The notes under the pieces were generated by a model, which did no database searches, had not been told where the DNA came from, and worked only from the letters and a program-made list of their open reading frames with translations. Positions 8,854 to 37,162 of a stretch of DNA of 37,162 nucleotides are shown in pieces (positions within the stretch are counted from its first letter, which is position 1; each line of letters begins with the position of its first letter). The translations under genes and the position numbers were made by a program. Origin of the DNA: Ruminococcus sp. (lineage in GTDB: Bacteria; Bacillota_A; Clostridia; Oscillospirales; Acutalibacteraceae); contig JAFUPE010000064.1 of assembly GCA_017481395.1 (NCBI GenBank), positions 1 to 37,162 on the forward strand. The letters run 5' to 3'.

Positions 8854-9303
8854 TTATTCGGATTTATCCTCGTCAGGACTCGTATCGTCTGTTTTGTCTT
8901 TAAGCTGTAAAAGAACCGACTTTAATTTTTGCGGCAAAGGTATAACTTTAGCAGCATTTTCTAAAACCGACAAGCCTTCGTTTGCAACAAAGAATAAGAT
9001 TGTTATTTCCCTTAAAGGCAACGCCTCTGGAAGAATTCTCTGCAATGTTACCGCCACGCCCACAACAAGTATCATAATTATCTTTTTGATGATTCCCTTG
9101 TATCCGATAGTGCTTGAAAGCTTTTTTTCGTAAATTGCCGCGATGAATCCTGTTACATAATCAACGGCTATTAGAATAACAAGGGTCACAAGCAAGCTGT
9201 CAAAACCGCCTAAAAACTTAGTAACGTAGCCAAAAATCGTTGCAAGCACCGCCGACAAAGTAAATTTTGCCGCAGTAATTCCTGTAGAAAAAGGATTATA
9301 CAT
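8854..9303 (-). CDS. Phage holin (Phage_holin_4 / TcdE-like family)
   Basis: Holins oligomerise in the cytoplasmic membrane and let the endolysin reach the cell wall. The 149-aa protein has three or four hydrophobic segments (about residues 10-30, 33-55, 72-90 and 98-110). It carries the family core VDYVTGFIAAIYEKKLSSTIG followed by a charged tail rich in Asp, Glu and Lys. The core matches the phage_holin_4_1 / toxin-secretion holin type. The start overlaps the end of the endolysin gene by 8 nt. Orientation and order (endolysin then holin) fit a lysis module, though in many phages the holin comes first. Confidence 0.87.
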   Translation of the reverse strand: MYNPFSTGITAAKFTLSAVLATIFGYVTKFLGGFDSLLVTLVILIAVDYVTGFIAAIYEKKLSSTIGYKGIIKKIIMILVVGVAVTLQRILPEALPLREITILFFVANEGLSVLENAAKVIPLPQKLKSVLLQLKDKTDDTSPDEDKSE

Positions 9304-10225
9304 CTTCTACACCTGCAATTCTTTTCTGAAGCGCGGTTACGTCTTTGACATTCACCTTACCGTCGCCGTTAATATCGCCTACTTTAGACAAGGCATCAAC
9401 AATCGCCTGATGCATTTTTCGTATAAACACAAGGTCAACAGTCTGATTTTCTGCCATTTTCAGCGACTTTTTCATCTGCAAAATTGCCGACGAGGTCATC
9501 TTGCCCTTTTTATTGTCAATAGGAGTAATGGTCTGTGTAATAATACCCAAACGCTCTGAAAGTATAAGAAGAGACTGCAAAGCCGCTACCTCGAAGCTTT
9601 GAGGTGTTTTATCCTCTTCAGATGTGTCGGAAGTTGATTTTATCATTTTGTCGCTGTAAATAATATTCATATCAACATTGCCCGAAACGCCCTGCACTTT
9701 ACCGCTTGAGGTATACTGCCAAACATCGCACTTAAACTCCGCCTCGCTGTTATACTGAGCAAGCCATACATAATAGGTACCGTAAAGAGATTTATAGTCA
9801 AGGTAATTTTCAAACCAGTTAGCGTTTGCATATATACCTACTCTGTATCCCGCCTTTAAAAGTTCTGTCATAAAGGCTTTTGCCATATTTGTAAGGGTAG
9901 CTTTGCCAAGCTTTGTCTGCGAGTTGTCTTCCATATCATAAAAAATCGGAAGTTCGAAGCTTTTTCCCTTAAGTACACTTATACAAGCCTTAGCCTCTTT
10001 CTTAGCATCAGCTACGTCAACTGCATAAGAATACCAATAAGCACCCAACTTAACGCCTGATGCCTTGGCTTTTTTATAATTCGACTCAAATTCGGCGTCA
10101 ACCTGCGAAGCTTCTCTGCCGAAGCCAGCACGAAGAATTGCATACTCTATGCCCGAAGCCTTAACCTTTTCAAAGTCTATGCTTCCCTGCCATTCGGATA
10201 CGTCAATACATTTAATCTCTGCCAA
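9296..10225 (-). CDS. GH25 lysozyme-type endolysin with a C-terminal half-dockerin
   Basis: GH25 enzymes are N-acetylmuramidases that cut peptidoglycan. The GH25 domain spans about residues 1-200: CIDVSEWQG with Asp8, FYDMED with Asp97 and Glu99, and the closing DVWQYTSSGKVQGVSGNVDMN. A linker of about 80 residues follows (ALQSLLILSERLGI...), of unclear function. The end, residues 283-305, reads GDINGDGKVNVKDVTALQ, which matches one calcium-binding repeat of a type I dockerin (D-x-N-x-D-G). Real dockerins normally carry two. No signal peptide is seen, as expected for an endolysin exported through a holin. The start is TTG at 10225, directly abutting the previous stop and preceded by GGAGGTGAT. 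Confidence 0.88.
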   Translation of the reverse strand: MAEIKCIDVSEWQGSIDFEKVKASGIEYAILRAGFGREASQVDAEFESNYKKAKASGVKLGAYWYSYAVDVADAKKEAKACISVLKGKSFELPIFYDMEDNSQTKLGKATLTNMAKAFMTELLKAGYRVGIYANANWFENYLDYKSLYGTYYVWLAQYNSEAEFKCDVWQYTSSGKVQGVSGNVDMNIIYSDKMIKSTSDTSEEDKTPQSFEVAALQSLLILSERLGIITQTITPIDNKKGKMTSSAILQMKKSLKMAENQTVDLVFIRKMHQAIVDALSKVGDINGDGKVNVKDVTALQKRIAGVEDV

Positions 10226-10462
10226 TTATATCACCTCCTCCAAAGTATGTACTTTCCATCTGCCGTACACAGCATCTTGGCCATTTTCGTAGCAAAGTGC
10301 CGCGTAAAAGCCTTCTAAAAGTATAGGCTTCACGTCAACAATAAGCTCCTTGAAGCCTGCCTCCTTTGCTTTTGCTTCGTCGTTGGCATAAACCGTACCG
10401 TTTTCCTCTACAAGACCGCGATACGGCTCTACACTTGTGTCGGAAATATATTTAACCAGCAT
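10226..10462 (-). CDS. Small phage-cassette protein of unknown function
   Basis: A 78-aa acidic protein (MLVKYISDTSVEPYRGLVEEN...) that I do not recognise. It has no membrane segment or signal peptide. Its start overlaps the upstream LamG gene by 11 nt and has an AAGGAGG site. Its own end supplies the ribosome binding site (GGAGGTGAT) for the endolysin, so it is translationally locked into the cassette. Small proteins at this position in phages often belong to the tail tip, but that is only inferred from place. Confidence 0.7.
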   Translation of the reverse strand: MLVKYISDTSVEPYRGLVEENGTVYANDEAKAKEAGFKELIVDVKPILLEGFYAALCYENGQDAVYGRWKVHTLEEVI

Positions 10463-11204
10463 TCAAATTAAACCTCCTTGTATCTATCGCCAGATTATGC
10501 AGTCGTTCTTGCTCCGTAAGCTTTCGGTTATACACTCTTATAGAGCATATCTCGCCACTTAGCCTGTATTCCCATGTGGAGCCGTCTTTGTTAAGTCTTG
10601 CACCAATTGTCGTCATGGTATTATACATACTTCCTGCTGTTTCACCTTTAACGCATTCGGTGCCGTTGCGGTAAAAATCAAAGCTGTTCAAGTCCTCGTT
10701 TGAATAAACAATGCTATAGCTTGCCCTCTCGGTTACGTCTGAAACCAAAACTGGCGAAGCACTGTCCCAAGTGCCCACCTTAAAGCCTGCTGATGAAGGG
10801 CGGTACCAAAGGCCTGCGGCACCATTTTCGGCAGATGCAGCTGTGCCCTTACCCAAAAACAACACCTGAACGTCGTCGGAATTGTTAAGCTTACACACCA
10901 CCTCTAAGGTTCTGTCATTAAGACCCGAAAGCACACCTGTAAGGTTTATATACTCCTCGTCTAAAATCTTACTGCGGCTGTTTACTCCGTCAAAAAACAC
11001 TGAATCCTTTGTCTGAGATACTCCGCCTACGTTTGACTTTTGTCCCGAAATTGCCCTGTCACGCCATATTCTGATTTTCTCACCAGCATTATCATACATA
11101 ACGATAAAGGGCTCCTGAGCGTCAAGCCACAACACAAGCCCGTCTTTTACATAGTCAGGCTTCGATTTTGAGAGCATAAGAGCCTTGTTTCTTAGCTTAC
11201 TCAT
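10452..11204 (-). CDS. LamG / concanavalin A-like domain protein (phage tail-associated)
   Basis: A 250-aa protein with one jelly-roll LamG-like fold. Recognisable parts are DGLVLWLDAQEP near the start, DRTLEVVCKLNNS in the middle, and the typical closing strand LSGEICSIRVYNRKLTEQERLHN. Such domains bind carbohydrates or surface ligands and are common in tail fibre and adhesin proteins of phages infecting Clostridia. It has no signal peptide, so it is not a secreted host protein by the usual route. It overlaps the upstream tail gene by 8 nt and the downstream small gene by 11 nt. The start ATG at 11204 follows AGAGGAG. A host receptor-binding role is inferred. Confidence 0.75.
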   Translation of the reverse strand: MSKLRNKALMLSKSKPDYVKDGLVLWLDAQEPFIVMYDNAGEKIRIWRDRAISGQKSNVGGVSQTKDSVFFDGVNSRSKILDEEYINLTGVLSGLNDRTLEVVCKLNNSDDVQVLFLGKGTAASAENGAAGLWYRPSSAGFKVGTWDSASPVLVSDVTERASYSIVYSNEDLNSFDFYRNGTECVKGETAGSMYNTMTTIGARLNKDGSTWEYRLSGEICSIRVYNRKLTEQERLHNLAIDTRRFNLNAG

Positions 11205-12435
11205 TTTCTACTCCTCTTACAGCGGCATTCATATTAAAGCCGTCGTACCAGAAGACAATGTTATAGGTTTTGTTAACCTGAGGCACCAAACAGTTATATG
11301 TAACCGAAATATCGTTTTCTGTGGTGGTAATACTTGCGACGTCGTCACCACTCCACTTAACCGAAGATGGACAAGTAAGTGCTGTAGCAATACTGCTGCT
11401 TCTGAATACAAGTGCACATTCAAAATCATCTGTAATGCTCTGAGGAAGCTTTACTGTAAGGCTCTGAGCATATTCGGTAATTCGGTACTCGGTAAGTGTA
11501 TCTATTGTAATTACAGGATTAGACGCCATAACCTTAACGCTTGTAACAGCCTCAGAATATTTTCGGTCAAGCATATCGGGAGTTATGGTGCCCGCGGCAA
11601 TATTCAGCTCCTTACTTTCACAGGATGTAATTACAGAACTGCCCTTTTTGTAAATCCACCTTTCTCCGTTTGTGATATTCAGCAATAAAAGACAGGAATA
11701 TGCATGAGAGACCATTGCTATAAAGTCACCCTCGCCTACAACAGCTTTAACAGGCGAAAGTCCCGAGAAAGCTACTTTGTAAATAGTATCCTCGGCAAAG
11801 CTTTCTTCTATCATCGAGTCAAAATAGCCGTATCCTACCACGGTTGTCCTTCTGATTATACGCCAATACTCCCTATCAAGCATTTCGGGCGTAACCGAAC
11901 CCTGTGTAATGCTTGCAGTTACCGAAACGCCGCTATCAACATAAGCCTCGCTATCTGTATCATATGTAAACCAATTGCCGTTTGTGCCCACATAGGGCAT
12001 TTTTGCCGAAGCATTCTGCATCTTCTCATAAAGCTTATTAAGTGTCTTTTCGAAATACAGAAATTCAGAATTTGAGTTTTTAAACTCCTCGTCATCCTCG
12101 CAAGCTTTGCCTACCATAAAAACATCCGAGGTCGTGTGGTAAACCTCGTTTTCATCAGAAAACGCCTTAATCTGAGCCTTAACAAGTCCGCTTTGTAAAA
12201 TATGGCTTTCCTCAATATTCCAAGTAAGCCATGTGCCCTCGTCGCTGATATCCGAGGGAAGCACAAAAAAGTTGTGTCTGCCATCATCAAAGGTAAGGTA
12301 AAGACGATAGAGCCATCCGCTTTGGGTGTTTAAGCGGATAAAGAATTTCTTTTGAGTGTGAAGATTGTCACCTTTAAAGCCTAAAAATCTTTCACTCTCG
12401 GGGATGGTAAGTATTCCATCCGAGATTGTAATCAT
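11197..12435 (-). CDS. Phage baseplate upper / tail fibre-like protein
   Basis: A 412-aa protein from the ATG at 12435 (MITISDGILTIPESERFLG), behind GGAGGTG. An 18-codon upstream extension of the frame runs through the uvrA terminator and is not used. The N-terminal 120 residues resemble the immunoglobulin-like N-domain of baseplate upper proteins (LYLTFDDGRHNFFVLPSDIS, WLTWNIEESHILQSGLVKAQI). A short helical stretch (FLYFEKTLNKLYEKMQNASAKM) follows. Two copies of a motif, TPEMLDREYW and TPDMLDRKYSEA, introduce two later segments, as in tail fibres built from repeated modules. No Asp-box or enzyme motif was seen. It is first of five overlapping leftward genes. The domain call is by pattern and moderately sure. 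Confidence 0.62.
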   Translation of the reverse strand: MITISDGILTIPESERFLGFKGDNLHTQKKFFIRLNTQSGWLYRLYLTFDDGRHNFFVLPSDISDEGTWLTWNIEESHILQSGLVKAQIKAFSDENEVYHTTSDVFMVGKACEDDEEFKNSNSEFLYFEKTLNKLYEKMQNASAKMPYVGTNGNWFTYDTDSEAYVDSGVSVTASITQGSVTPEMLDREYWRIIRRTTVVGYGYFDSMIEESFAEDTIYKVAFSGLSPVKAVVGEGDFIAMVSHAYSCLLLLNITNGERWIYKKGSSVITSCESKELNIAAGTITPDMLDRKYSEAVTSVKVMASNPVITIDTLTEYRITEYAQSLTVKLPQSITDDFECALVFRSSSIATALTCPSSVKWSGDDVASITTTENDISVTYNCLVPQVNKTYNIVFWYDGFNMNAAVRGVENE

Positions 12436-12460
12436 ATGAATACACCTCCAAAAACAGGCA

Positions 12461-12500
12461 TAAAAAAAGAAAAAATTGCATAAAACCATGCAATTTTTTC
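12461..12500 (-). terminator. Rho-independent terminator of uvrA
   Basis: GAAAAAATTGCAT (12469-12481) and ATGCAATTTTTTC (12488-12500) form a 13-bp stem. On the minus strand the second arm runs into TTTTTTC and then seven more Ts. It lies just past the uvrA stop and only about 25 nt before the start of the tail gene. Confidence 0.85.
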
Positions 12501-21558: not shown

Positions 21559-23199
21559 TTATATCTTTGCGTTAGAAATCAGCTTGTAATTATTCACGTA
21601 GCTTTCGATAGAATCTGCAAAATGCTGACGGATAGCAACGGTATCCGCACCTTTTTTACGTAAGTATGCCGCAGTCTCAAACGCCGCAGAGCCTGCGTTT
21701 ATAACAAAATTCTTGGTGTCTAAAATAACACCCGAAAGAAGTGCCTCTGCCTCGGGCTTGCCTAAAGGCTCGCCCTCGAAATTGTCGATAATACTTGTAC
21801 AAAGCTCAGATGCCGAAGAAGCCCCCGGTTCGTTTAAGAACACAACAGCATTTTCAATGTGGTCAACCTGACGTCGGTGATGGTCAATTACAATACATGC
21901 ACCGCATTGCTCAAAAAGCCTACTATCCTCAAGCATACCTACAGTCTGTGTATCCACAATAATAAGCAGGGTTTTTGAAGTCATCTGAGTAAGTGCCTGC
22001 TGAGGACTTACAAAAATCCCCTCGCCCCTGTCTCTTGTGTACTTATCAATAAGAGACTTTGCCATTGAGGTCTCATAATTTACAGCAATACAGGCTTTTT
22101 TACCCAGAGCACGTGTAACCGCCCTGTACATACCGATAGAAGCACCAATTGAGTCAAGGTCAGAAAACCTATGGCCTGTAATAACAACCTTGTCACACTC
22201 AGAAACAGCATTTGCAACAGAGTCTGCTATCATACGTGTACGCACCTTAGTCTGCTTTTCAACACCTACGGACTTACCGCCGTAAAAGTCAAAATCCTTG
22301 CCTGTGGCAATCGCAACCTGGTCTCCGCCTCTTCCCAAAGCCATATCCAGTGCACGCTTTGCCGACAACTGGCTCTTTCTTAAATTCTTCTCGCCTCTGC
22401 CAATACCGATAGAAACCGTAGCCTCAATATCACCCATTTTAATCTCATGGATTTTATCCAGAATATCAAACTTGGTTTCAATTATCTTTTTCAGCTCACG
22501 CTCTTCGAAAATAACCATATAGCGGTTACCTGCCAGCTTGCGGTAAAGTGCGTTTGCATCCGCCGCCCACTTTTGCAGCGTATCCTCTACGTGCAGTACA
22601 ATGTGGGCACTTTCTTCTTCAAACTCGTCTATAAAAAGCTCGCGGTTATCAAAAACCACCATAGCCACCGATTGGCGTGTAGCCTTGTATTCGGCATCTA
22701 CCTTTTTATAGTAGGTGTCATCATAAAAGTATAGCACCGTACCTGTACCTGTATCAGCACCGAAGGCTGTCAGCTGAAGGTCACCATATTTAACGGCAGT
22801 GCCTTCGTTTTTTACAATATCCGAAACATCGGCAGAAAAAAATCTGTAGTCGATATGTACCCCCAAGAGATTTTCCTCGGGGCAAAAAAGCTTTTTAAAA
22901 GCTCTGTTGTAAAACACAAGCTCGTTGTCGTTATTTAAAACCGCCACAGGAAAGCTAAGCTTATCAGCAAAGCCTGTGTCGGCGTTGCGTATGTTCTTAA
23001 CCGAATTACGCAGCGAAAACTGAACGTACCTTGCAAACAGAAAGTAAAGTATTATTGCCGCAATTACTGCCACCAAGGCAACCGCACCCTGTATAAAAAA
23101 CAGATTCAAATCGTAAAAAGCGGCAGGAATGGCAATAATCATCATAGCTATTGCAAACAACACCAAATAAGGTACTGTGTGTGCAAATTTATTTTTCAT
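21559..23199 (-). CDS. gdpP: GdpP cyclic-di-AMP phosphodiesterase, truncated before the DHHA1 domain
   Basis: GdpP is a membrane protein that hydrolyses the second messenger c-di-AMP. This frame encodes 546 aa. Two membrane helices lie at about 8-28 and 35-56. A PAS-like domain follows at about 75-165 (LSFPVAVLNNDNELVFYNRAF), then a degenerate GGDEF at about 175-300. The DHH domain starts near 320 with GHRFSDLDSIGAS (His343, Asp347, Asp349), then LLIIVDTQ, VIDHHRR and GVILDTKNF. It stops at ISNAKI-TAA, where other GdpP proteins continue into DHHA1, and the missing part is in frame just downstream. The stop may make the gene non-functional. Start ATG at 23199 follows GGAAAAGG. The 5' side is filled by a hairpin array. 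Confidence 0.88.
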   Translation of the reverse strand: MKNKFAHTVPYLVLFAIAMMIIAIPAAFYDLNLFFIQGAVALVAVIAAIILYFLFARYVQFSLRNSVKNIRNADTGFADKLSFPVAVLNNDNELVFYNRAFKKLFCPEENLLGVHIDYRFFSADVSDIVKNEGTAVKYGDLQLTAFGADTGTGTVLYFYDDTYYKKVDAEYKATRQSVAMVVFDNRELFIDEFEEESAHIVLHVEDTLQKWAADANALYRKLAGNRYMVIFEERELKKIIETKFDILDKIHEIKMGDIEATVSIGIGRGEKNLRKSQLSAKRALDMALGRGGDQVAIATGKDFDFYGGKSVGVEKQTKVRTRMIADSVANAVSECDKVVITGHRFSDLDSIGASIGMYRAVTRALGKKACIAVNYETSMAKSLIDKYTRDRGEGIFVSPQQALTQMTSKTLLIIVDTQTVGMLEDSRLFEQCGACIVIDHHRRQVDHIENAVVFLNEPGASSASELCTSIIDNFEGEPLGKPEAEALLSGVILDTKNFVINAGSAAFETAAYLRKKGADTVAIRQHFADSIESYVNNYKLISNAKI

Positions 23200-23216: not shown

Positions 23217-23342
23217 TTTAACGTTTGCTTTAGCAAACATATCGCACCGCCAAACCAAAGGCGGTATATCGCATTTGCGTAGCAAATATATCGCATCGTC
23301 GCAGACGATATATCGCTGTATTTGCATTGCAAATACGTTAAA
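23217..23342. repeat. Array of five hairpins with a constant ATATCGC linker and inverted ends
   Basis: The whole rnjA-gdpP gap is built of short hairpins: GTTTGC/GCAAAC (23223-23238), ACCGCC/GGCGGT (23246-23265), ATTTGC/GCAAAT (23273-23287), ATCGTC/GACGAT (23295-23309) and GTATTTGC/GCAAATAC (23318-23336). The first four are each followed by exactly ATATCGC (23239, 23266, 23288, 23310; GCGATAT on the transcribed strand). Stem sequences differ while pairing is perfect, and the linker is invariant. The array is bounded by TTTAACGT (23217-23224) and ACGTTAAA (23335-23342), a perfect terminal inverted repeat. The right end overlaps the rnjA stop codon. It codes for nothing and would be transcribed in the rnjA-gdpP message. 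Confidence 0.85.
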
Positions 23343-34138: not shown

Positions 34139-34215
34139 TGGCCCGCCTGAAGGGATTCGAACCCCCGTTCTTCAGAATCGGAATCTGCTGCGTTATCCAA
34201 CTGCGCCACAGGCGG
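34139..34215 (-). tRNA. tRNA-Arg, anticodon CCG
   Basis: Reading leftward from 34215: acceptor CCGCCTG pairs with CAGGCGG, D-arm with AGTTGGATA loop, anticodon loop TTCCGAT (anticodon CCG, codon CGG), T-loop TTCGAAT, discriminator G, and an encoded CCA at 34139-34141. A promoter lies just upstream and a terminator downstream. Confidence 0.93.
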
Positions 34216-36238: not shown

Positions 36239-37162
36239 TTATCCTGTTTTTGAAGTTAAATTAATGGTTTCATCAAGTTTCTTTGCGGCATTACGCTGAG
36301 CTGATTCGTATGAATGTGAATATATCTGCAACGTGAGTGCTACGTCTGCATGACCGAGGTTATGCTGTACTGTCTTCGGGTTCTCTCCATTTTCAATCAG
36401 TACACTTGCGTAGGTATGTCTGAGTCCATGGAATTTCAGGTATCGAATTTTATCTTTATGTCTTTTCATAAAACGTTGATAACTATTTGATATTCCACTT
36501 GGACTAAAAGCTTCACCGTTAGGCTTACTGATTACATAATTACTGTCAACAAAGTCTTTTCCGTATTTAAGCTTATTCAATAAGTATCTGTGTTTGTATT
36601 CTTTAAGTACATTCAATAGTTTTTCTGGAATGAAGATTTTACGGATACCTGATTCTGTTTTAGGTTCTTTGATGTATTCTTCTCTCTCAACCACCACACG
36701 GCTTTTAGAGATATAAATATATCCTTCCTCAAAATTCACATCAGACCAAAGCAATCCTGCCATCTCTCCACGTCTGATACCTGACAACAATCCAAGATAT
36801 ATTATAAGTTTTATATCAGGGTTTTCGTCGTTATCAGCAAGTTTTAGCATCAAGTTAAATTCGTCCAAATTGTACGCTTCGACAGGTTTCTTGTGTTGAC
36901 GAGGTTTTTGAATTTTATATAACATCGGATTAGCTTCTCTTTGGATAATATTCTCTTGAACTGCAAGAGTAAAAATTACATTGAGAAGCATTAAGTAATT
37001 TTTAGTAGATTTAGGACTAACATGGGAACATAAAAAATTAACATATTCCTGAATATTTCTTGGTGAAATTTTGCGTAATCTCGCATCTCTAAAGTAATTT
37101 TGCAAGCCATAGGGCTTCGAGTTGTAATATGCCGACTTGTAGCCTTTGAGTGTTGTAGGGCT
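36239..37162 (-). CDS. Tyrosine recombinase / phage-type integrase (5' end beyond the window)
   Basis: Tyrosine recombinases integrate and excise mobile elements at specific att sites. The frame stays open to the right edge (SPTTLKGYKSAYYNSK...), so the N-terminal arm-binding part is missing; a TTG at 37105 is not the start. The visible 307 residues hold a SAM-like core-binding domain (ISPRNIQEYVNFLCSHVSPKSTKNYLMLLN) and the catalytic domain. The catalytic domain has Arg in GLLSGIRRGEMAGLLW, HGLRHTYASVL (His and Arg), LGHADVALTLQIYSH (His and the nucleophile Tyr). All key residues are present, so it appears active. It points toward the tRNA-Leu, which fits a tRNA-targeted element. Confidence 0.93.
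   Translation of the reverse strand, partial: SPTTLKGYKSAYYNSKPYGLQNYFRDARLRKISPRNIQEYVNFLCSHVSPKSTKNYLMLLNVIFTLAVQENIIQREANPMLYKIQKPRQHKKPVEAYNLDEFNLMLKLADNDENPDIKLIIYLGLLSGIRRGEMAGLLWSDVNFEEGYIYISKSRVVVEREEYIKEPKTESGIRKIFIPEKLLNVLKEYKHRYLLNKLKYGKDFVDSNYVISKPNGEAFSPSGISNSYQRFMKRHKDKIRYLKFHGLRHTYASVLIENGENPKTVQHNLGHADVALTLQIYSHSYESAQRNAAKKLDETINLTSKTG

What the first reader, a model, noticed from the sequence alone, without database searches (positions are those of the whole stretch)
23217..23342. Array of five unlike hairpins joined by an invariant 7-nt linker, with perfect inverted ends, filling the rnjA-gdpP gap
Each hairpin has a different but perfectly paired stem (6 to 8 bp), and the first four are followed by exactly ATATCGC. 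Stems vary while pairing is kept, which points to selection on structure. The ends TTTAACGT / ACGTTAAA are perfect inverted repeats, and one overlaps the rnjA stop codon, as for an inserted element. It is transcribed between an RNase and a c-di-AMP enzyme gene, so it could be an RNA stability or processing element, a protein-binding RNA array, or a non-autonomous repeat. It is not a CRISPR: the constant parts are too short and the variable parts are palindromes.
Basis: seen in the sequence. Interest (0 to 1): 0.82.

Follow-up and report, generated by a model that had tools for sequence, protein, structure and literature searches.

The report
Dispersed DNA hairpin-array repeat
A small string of hairpins between two bacterial genes is one stray copy of a widespread repeat family in gut bacteria and their phages that looks like folded single-stranded DNA rather than RNA, and that is tied to a small ring-forming protein whose job has been unknown.

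Summary
The array is real: five different hairpins joined by four exact ATATCGC linkers, 1 nt after the rnjA stop codon. The five closest relatives lack it. GCGATAT-linked arrays occur in 8 of 161 congeneric genomes by one pattern, in a ninth by a wider one, and in phage-like contigs. The nearest described family is Rfam 'Gut-1 RNA' (GUGAAAU linkers); the window scores 31.1 bits against a cut-off of 50, so it is a relative, not a member. Two results go further. (1) Loops are strand-specific: on the ATTTCAC/ATATCGC strand they are cGNAg or cGNNAg, stable DNA-hairpin motifs (94 v 1 and 85 v 0 the other way), without GNRA preference. This points to folded single-stranded DNA. (2) A four-helix-bundle protein (PF05635, S23/IVP) is the likely partner: 110 of 130 Gut-1 genomes have it against 35 of 170 others, many of its genes carry such arrays directly upstream, and linker class follows protein clade. 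Best reading: a non-autonomous solo copy of an IVP-associated DNA repeat placed at stop codons and terminators. Movement, target duplication and protein binding are not shown.

The parts
23217..23342 (-). whole array (half-element type: five hairpins, four linkers; no central inverted half)
   Evidence: compare L081, L088, L092
23318..23336 (-). hairpin 1 (GTATTTGC/GCAAATAC), starts 1 nt after the rnjA stop codon
23310..23316 (-). linker 1, GCGATAT on - strand (ATATCGC on +)
23295..23309 (.). hairpin 2; + strand loop C(GCA)G
23288..23294 (-). linker 2, GCGATAT
23273..23287 (.). hairpin 3; + strand loop C(GTA)G
23266..23272 (-). linker 3, GCGATAT
23246..23265 (.). hairpin 4 (ACCGCC/GGCGGT, 8-nt loop)
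23239..23245 (-). linker 4, GCGATAT
23223..23238 (.). hairpin 5 (GTTTGC/GCAAAC)
23217..23224 (.). TTTAACGT, inverted repeat of 23335-23342; probably partly host sequence
23335..23342 (.). ACGTTAAA, inverted repeat of 23217-23224; contains the rnjA stop codon
23338..25332 (-). rnjA, ribonuclease J (upstream host gene)
21559..23199 (-). gdpP-like c-di-AMP phosphodiesterase (downstream host gene)

Best explanation
The array is a non-autonomous solo copy of a two-component DNA repeat system. Component one is an array of 7-nt linkers separated by short palindromes whose sequence is free but which must fold. Full copies have two convergent halves, and on each strand the foldable half lies 3' of the centre. 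Component two is a ~115-residue four-helix-bundle protein of family PF05635 (S23/IVP), encoded about 20-90 bp beyond one end of an autonomous copy. Linker class follows protein clade; for GCGATAT the protein is seen intact in G064 and broken in G008. Shown: dispersal, array-free orthologous gaps, strand-specific DNA-type loops, the protein-repeat association, and placement of many copies at stop codons or beside tRNA genes. Inferred: the pentameric protein binds a run of linkers held open between ssDNA hairpins, and this complex copies or pastes the repeat next to stop codons or terminators, probably on ssDNA at replication or transcription. Not shown: movement, catalysis (I know of no catalytic site in PF05635, so a host activity would be needed), and binding.
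For: Dispersal: GCGATAT triple-linker arrays in 5 of 10 relatives, reversed pattern 0 in all 10; 8 of 161 genus genomes plus G037 (100 genomes; its other new match, G076, is a coding repeat without palindromes and was set aside). Array-free gaps in L001, L002, L003, L008, L050. Phage-like contigs L174 (3 copies), L112, L214, L365. Gut-1 in 130 of 300 family genomes, 105 over cut-off. Loops: 370 distinct hairpins; triloops cGNAg 94 of 172 against 1 in the opposite sense; tetraloops cGNNAg 85 of 146 against 0; 43 of the 85 are GNRA; cUUCGg 0 sense, 1 antisense. The three well-sampled linker families agree. Terminator-like hairpins of the same loci: cGNAg 3 of 136, cGNNAg 33 of 466, of which 27 GNRA. 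Protein: Gut-1 x PF05635 110/130 against 35/170, odds ratio 21. Strict hairpin array upstream of 27 of 71 IVP genes against 1 of 400 control genes. Linker class on a tree of 40 IVPs: 10 states, 9 changes; 200 label shuffles gave at least 20. Intact GCGATAT array-IVP pair in L669. PDB 2rld, E 3e-23, five chains.
Against: No target-site duplication and no exact empty/filled pair was found; one 18-nt direct repeat flanks the L112 copy only, of 40 clusters. Of the nine GCGATAT genomes, all have PF05635, but only G008 has one with a GCGATAT array and it is broken; the PF05635 genes read in the others carry other linkers or heptads, so no working cognate protein is in sight there (drafts). G001 has an array remnant at glnA but no PF05635 match; G005 only a fragment. 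20 of 130 Gut-1 genomes show no PF05635 and 35 PF05635 genomes no Gut-1; that test is not linker-matched and not corrected for kinship. 44 of 71 IVP genes failed the strict upstream test; some have arrays that I see by eye or plain heptads, and PF05635 genes such as L613-L626 show no array by the scans used. Arrays at glnA in several species also fit vertical retention. The window holds no convincing IVP gene (best tblastn E 0.016 among 40 queries). Only 2 of the window's 5 hairpins have GNA loops.
Confidence: 0.57

Rival explanations
1. Structured RNA: a Gut-1-like non-coding RNA or 3'-UTR element whose single-stranded GCGAUAU linkers bind a protein, as sponge or processing signal.
For: At glnA the array lies between stop codon and what looks like the native terminator; Rfam files Gut-1 as sRNA; the table of Weinberg 2010 marks it as certainly RNA and probably not cis-regulatory.
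Against: Loops are DNA-type and in the window lie on the strand opposite the rnjA/gdpP mRNA, show no GNRA preference and essentially no UUCG; few wobble pairs; the two halves of full copies fold on opposite strands; several linker families per genome.
Confidence: 0.14
2. Operator: the arrays are IVP autoregulatory sites, spread with the gene and left behind when the gene decays.
For: Arrays end just upstream of IVP genes; remnant IVP genes lie between arrays in G008.
Against: Many copies show no trace of IVP, sit beside tRNA genes (45 of 60 loci) or in phage-like gene gaps; an operator does not need two convergent halves or foldable ssDNA loops.
Confidence: 0.12
3. REP/RAYT-type repeat moved by a Y1 transposase.
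For: REP-like placement and opposite-facing units; divergent Y1 hits only (best E 1e-12 or weaker) in 31 of 130 Gut-1 genomes against 14 of 170.
Against: Any Y1: 75 of 130 against 79 of 170, not significant; strong IS200-like hits 35 of 130 against 56 of 170. No GTAG or CGTC tag; the array scan found none in the 15 Y1 loci examined.
Confidence: 0.07
4. Mutational by-product: palindromes kept perfect by template-switch correction, without function.
For: Pairs are mostly Watson-Crick; stems differ freely.
Against: Does not explain strand-specific GNA/GNNA loops, linker identity, or linker-clade match with IVP.
Confidence: 0.06

Closest known systems
Gut-1 RNA, Rfam RF01706 (Weinberg et al. 2010, PMC2864571; passages read)
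   Same: Same plan: unlike hairpins joined by a conserved 7-nt linker (GUGAAAU); matched sub-threshold by the window array and others.
   Different: Window linker is GCGAUAU and score 31.1 against cut-off 50. Published as a human-gut ncRNA; here a high-copy dispersed repeat with two convergent halves, DNA-type loops and a partner protein.
23S rRNA intervening sequences (IVS) and their S23p/IVP protein, PF05635 (PMC4990558, passages read)
   Same: Same protein family; a small selfish element with inverted-repeat ends, whose mobility was proposed earlier according to that paper.
   Different: IVS sit inside 23S rRNA helices and are cut out by RNase III; the arrays read here are intergenic, multi-hairpin and linker-coded.
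REP/BIME repeats with RAYT transposases (PMC3733652, abstract and outline read)
   Same: Dispersed hairpins with a conserved unpaired tag, units facing each other, mostly downstream of genes, cognate protein.
   Different: No GTAG/CGTC tag; stems not conserved; tandem hairpins; partner is a four-helix bundle, not a Y1 transposase.
Avd protein of diversity-generating retroelements (PMC10053308, passages read)
   Same: PF05635 resembles Avd according to that paper; an accessory factor of retrohoming.
   Different: I did not search the flanks for a reverse transcriptase or template repeat; none was noticed by eye.
IS200/IS605 ends, integron attC (recalled, no call)
   Same: Recombination sites read as ssDNA hairpins on one strand, structure over sequence.
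   Different: Single hairpins with a dedicated recombinase; not arrays.

Membership tests
Gut-1 RNA RF01706 | score at or above gathering cut-off (50 bits) | tested here: not met
   window 31.1 bits; best of the GCGATAT-type arrays scanned 39.9 (L305)
Gut-1 RNA RF01706 | hairpins joined by GUGAAAU linkers | tested here: not met
   architecture met, linker is GCGAUAU
Gut-1 RNA RF01706 | acts as a transcribed non-coding RNA | not testable with these tools
   no expression data; loop evidence points away
REP (GTAG/CGTC super-families) | GTAG or CGTC unpaired tag at the hairpin foot | tested here: not met
   linkers are GCGATAT/GTGAAAT and kin
REP (GTAG/CGTC super-families) | repeats next to the RAYT gene | tested here: not met
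   no arrays found in the 15 Y1 loci examined; not all Y1 genes were looked at
23S rRNA IVS | insertion within 23S rRNA | tested here: not met
   rnjA-gdpP gap
IVP-associated hairpin-array system (proposed here) | 7-nt linker shared with an IVP gene's own array | tested here: met
   GCGATAT array directly upstream of an intact IVP in L669 and of a broken one in G008
IVP-associated hairpin-array system (proposed here) | cGNA/cGNNA loops on the ATATCGC strand | tested here: inconclusive
   window: 2 of 5 hairpins; family as a whole met
Transposable element / MITE | target-site duplication or precise empty site | tested here: inconclusive
   relatives lack the array but gaps are too diverged for an exact junction; one 18-nt repeat at L112
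CRISPR array | long constant repeats with non-palindromic spacers | tested here: not met
   7-nt constant part, palindromic variable part

The most novel reading that the evidence does not exclude
S23/IVP (PF05635) proteins are the specificity factor of a large, undescribed class of mobile DNA elements. Their ends are arrays of a clade-specific heptamer, either plain tandem heptads or heptads spaced by ssDNA hairpins with GNA/GNNA loops. A pentameric ring reads about five heptamers. 'Gut-1 RNA', the window array and the copies beside tRNA genes and in phages are its non-autonomous offspring, and 23S rRNA IVS are a relic branch.
Probability: 0.4. Interest if true: 0.95.

Novelty: new variant of a known kind. 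Interest (0 to 1): 0.85.

Why it matters
It suggests a testable job for a protein family that PMC4990558 describes as without known function (S23/IVP; passage) and a different nature for the Rfam family Gut-1, published as an RNA. Linker-protein pairs that follow protein clades would be a ready-made set of sequence-specific ssDNA binders. The arrays lie next to tRNA, glnA and phage-like genes in many gut bacteria, so they shape 3' ends of genes and can confound RNA-family annotation.

Tried and rejected
Y1/RAYT transposase as partner: weak association, no arrays in the 15 loci examined. Target-site duplication scan over 40 array clusters: only L112 showed a long direct repeat outside array sequence (18 nt). 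Idea that hairpin 1 is host sequence: set aside for glnA because the array-free 3' ends that I read lack it. BLAST against plasmids: no match. Lead from memory of a TGATGATAT-type array: a few of 28 contigs had hairpin-spaced ones. Heptamer-count test: at least 4 near-identical heptamers upstream of 36 of 50 IVP genes and of 45 of 300 control genes; kept as weak support. Linkers per run (3 or 4, once 5) neither prove nor exclude a pentamer code. Wobble pairs: my parser stops at the second non-Watson-Crick pair, so the 98 per cent Watson-Crick figure is biased; terminator-like hairpins gave WC 7426, G.T 155, A.C 101, other 115 with a similar but not identical parser. Three-way covariation of the central arm was seen by eye only, not counted.

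Literature: ten searches of an open-access library; in the listings and passages seen I found no paper linking Gut-1, hairpin arrays or heptad repeats to PF05635. Subscription journals are not covered. PMC8700078 and PMC5524665 were seen in passages only and merely list four helix bundle proteins.

Full report
What is there. The rnjA-gdpP gap holds five unlike hairpins joined by four exact copies of one 7-mer, far more foldable than shuffles. Read on the mRNA strand the linker is GCGATAT. The window assembly has no held genome, so I worked through relatives found by RNase J (the best 80 of 157 loci are kept). I printed the gap after rnjA for 32 of these 80 loci; by eye none has such an array, including the five closest (L001, L002, L003, L008, L050). 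A scan of all 80 loci for clustered GCGATAT gave ten clusters besides the window, none of them a hairpin array by eye; they look coding.

It is a repeat family. In whole genomes of ten relatives, three-linker arrays occur in five, with up to 22 matches in one and none for the reversed pattern. In the genus, the pattern matched 8 of 161 genomes (G002, G004, G006, G007, G008, G050, G066, G111). A wider spacing matched 7 of 100 genomes, adding G037 and G076; the G076 match is a coding repeat without palindromes and was set aside. Copies also sit in gaps between phage-like genes: L174 has three near-identical ones, and L112, L365 and L214 have others. Gene identities there are by eye and by similarity among contigs.

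Plan of a full copy. Complete copies such as L112, L237, L243 and L090 have a left half (hairpins with GCGATAT on the top strand), a centre GAATTTATATC-ATATCGC or a variant of it, and a right half with ATATCGC on the top strand. The window copy is a left-type half only, like L081, L088 and L092. Hairpin 1 starts 0-5 nt from the first base of an upstream gene's stop codon in 13 of 37 anchored rows (at least three of the 37, L103, L113 and L173, are unrelated coding matches, left in the count). In the window it starts 4 nt from it, 1 nt after the codon.

Closest named family. Rfam's Gut-1 RNA matches below cut-off: window 31.1 bits (E 1.8e-4 in 271 bases), others up to 39.9. Its consensus is three hairpins joined by GUGAAAU. 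It was published as a human-gut non-coding RNA (PMC2864571, passages). A search of 300 genomes of the GTDB family found it in 130, over cut-off in 105. Only 15 candidates per genome are scored, so copy numbers are floors; of 14 control genomes E. coli had a match under the cut-off. The loci fetched show the same two-half plan in many cases. Strict GTGAAAT three-linker arrays occur in 10 of 15 chosen genomes, reversed pattern 0. Linker families found include GTGAAAT, GCGATAT, RTGATAT, ATGATGT, GTGAAGT, GCTAAAT and TGATGATAT.

Same site, different linker. Of 16 glnA 3' ends that I could read, seven have an array or remnant at the stop codon: GCGATAT in G006, G007, G008 and G037; ATGAAAT/ATGAAGT in G001, G004 and G005. 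G002, G003, G009 and G079, among the 11 closest, and five more distant genomes have none. At one tRNA terminator the congeners shown have GTGAAAT (L467, and with another arm L496, L498, L500), TGATGATAT (L494) or ATGATAT (L495) arrays, or none (L497, L499, L501); the other loci of that call were not classified. Of 60 Gut-1 loci taken from the score-ranked list, 45 have a tRNA (43) or tmRNA (2) gene within the 0.7-2.2 kb fetched. By my estimate, assuming about 50 tRNA genes per 2 Mb, a few per cent are expected. The sample favours high-scoring copies.

DNA, not RNA. Over 370 distinct linker-flanked hairpins, the strand reading ATTTCAC/ATATCGC carries cGNAg in 94 of 172 triloops (1 the other way) and cGNNAg in 85 of 146 tetraloops (0 the other way). 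43 of the 85 are GNRA, and cUUCGg occurs once. Non-redundant counts per linker family agree (GTGAAAT 52 of 89 and 40 of 62; GCGATAT 17 of 35 and 8 of 27; RTGATAT 11 of 15 and 10 of 18; opposite sense 0, 0; 1, 0; 0, 0). The smaller families are thin (ATGATGT/ATGAAGT 3 of 8 and 3 of 4; GCTAAAT 0 of 1 and 0 of 1). Terminator-like hairpins of the same loci show cGNAg 3 against cTNCg 6 of 136 triloops and cGNNAg 33 against cTNNCg 46 of 466 tetraloops, with 27 of the 33 GNRA and 13 cUUCGg. [quoted passage not shown] The selection of d(cGNNAg) DNA tetraloops is cited in the reference list of PMC2984261 (the original was not read). Pairs are mostly Watson-Crick, with 34 A.C against 9 G.T in linker sense, that is 34 G.T on the proposed folded strand (the parser limits non-Watson-Crick pairs). 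In the window the strand with such loops (C(GTA)G and C(GCA)G, two of five hairpins) is the + strand, opposite to the rnjA/gdpP mRNA.

Partner protein. Clustering ORFs near arrays brought up a ~115-residue protein next to many arrays. Six examples are PF05635/TIGR02436. One resembles PDB 2rld, whose entry holds five chains of it, and S23p of Xanthomonas is reported as a homopentamer (PMC4990558, passage). In what is, by the handles listed, the same draw of 300 genomes PF05635 occurs in 145, over cut-off in 140, and in 0 of 14 control genomes: 110 of 130 Gut-1 genomes and 35 of 170 others. All nine GCGATAT genomes have PF05635; of G001, G003, G005, G009, G010 and G079 two do, one a fragment. 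But only in G008 does such a gene carry a GCGATAT array, and it is broken; the genes read in the other eight carry other linkers or heptads. An intact one with a GCGATAT array was found in G064 (L669). A strict scan finds a hairpin array within 350 nt upstream of 27 of 71 IVP genes and of 1 of 400 control genes. In the 25 loci the scan finds 14, and by eye the other 11 show at least part of an array; these loci were chosen by similarity to one IVP. Another IVP clade is flanked by plain heptad repeats, often inverted on the two sides, and L613-L626 showed no array by the scans used. On a tree of 40 of the IVPs, linkers assigned by me from the upstream sequence and grouped into ten classes need nine changes, the minimum; shuffled labels need at least 20. 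Other groupings give 8 changes for 9 states, 8 for 8 and 15 for 16. The match is not one-to-one: GTGAAG-type linkers go with two different protein groups (L650/L657 and L642, L681, L683-L685). One genome can hold three clades with three linkers (G004, G008, G037).

Reading. A pentameric protein that recognises a run of heptamers, kept single-stranded between self-folding hairpins, explains invariant linkers, free stems, loop chemistry and linker-clade matching. How copies arise remains open: I know of no catalytic function of PF05635, so a host activity at terminated transcripts or replication forks would be needed. No target duplication was found except one 18-nt repeat at L112. The window has no convincing IVP gene, and its array should be a non-autonomous derivative, perhaps now only a passive or 3'-end-modifying insertion.

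Noticed in passing
L627, L628, L631, L632, L634, L639, L640, L644, L654, L661, L667: A PF05635 clade is flanked by plain tandem heptads (e.g. TTAGGAA types), in several loci inverted on the two sides of the gene.
   Followed up: partly
L650 and L657, upstream and downstream of the IVP gene: The left half of the array is repeated directly after the IVP gene, so the autonomous unit may be left-right-gene-left, like an element with direct terminal repeats.
   Followed up: partly
L174 5008, 7057, 10041: One phage-like contig carries three near-identical arrays between ORFs that look like terminase, portal and capsid genes, each starting at a stop codon.
   Followed up: partly
L112 4325-4560: The array is flanked by an 18-nt direct repeat that includes the stop codon of the upstream gene.
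   Followed up: partly
L613-L626: The best-scoring PF05635 genes form a group without hairpin arrays upstream by the scans used.
   Followed up: no
L199 4058-4132: GC-rich IMG/VR contig with ATATCGC linkers but very different hairpins.
   Followed up: no
L505 1250-1550: At the same tRNA site as L467, an array-like stretch with ATGAAGT units.
   Followed up: no
window 34142-34215 and 36239-37105: A tRNA gene not far from an ORF that by eye looks like a tyrosine recombinase; possible integrated element at the window end.
   Followed up: no
window 8854-12489: ORFs that by eye look like phage lysis and surface proteins (holin-like, lysozyme-like) between housekeeping genes.
   Followed up: no
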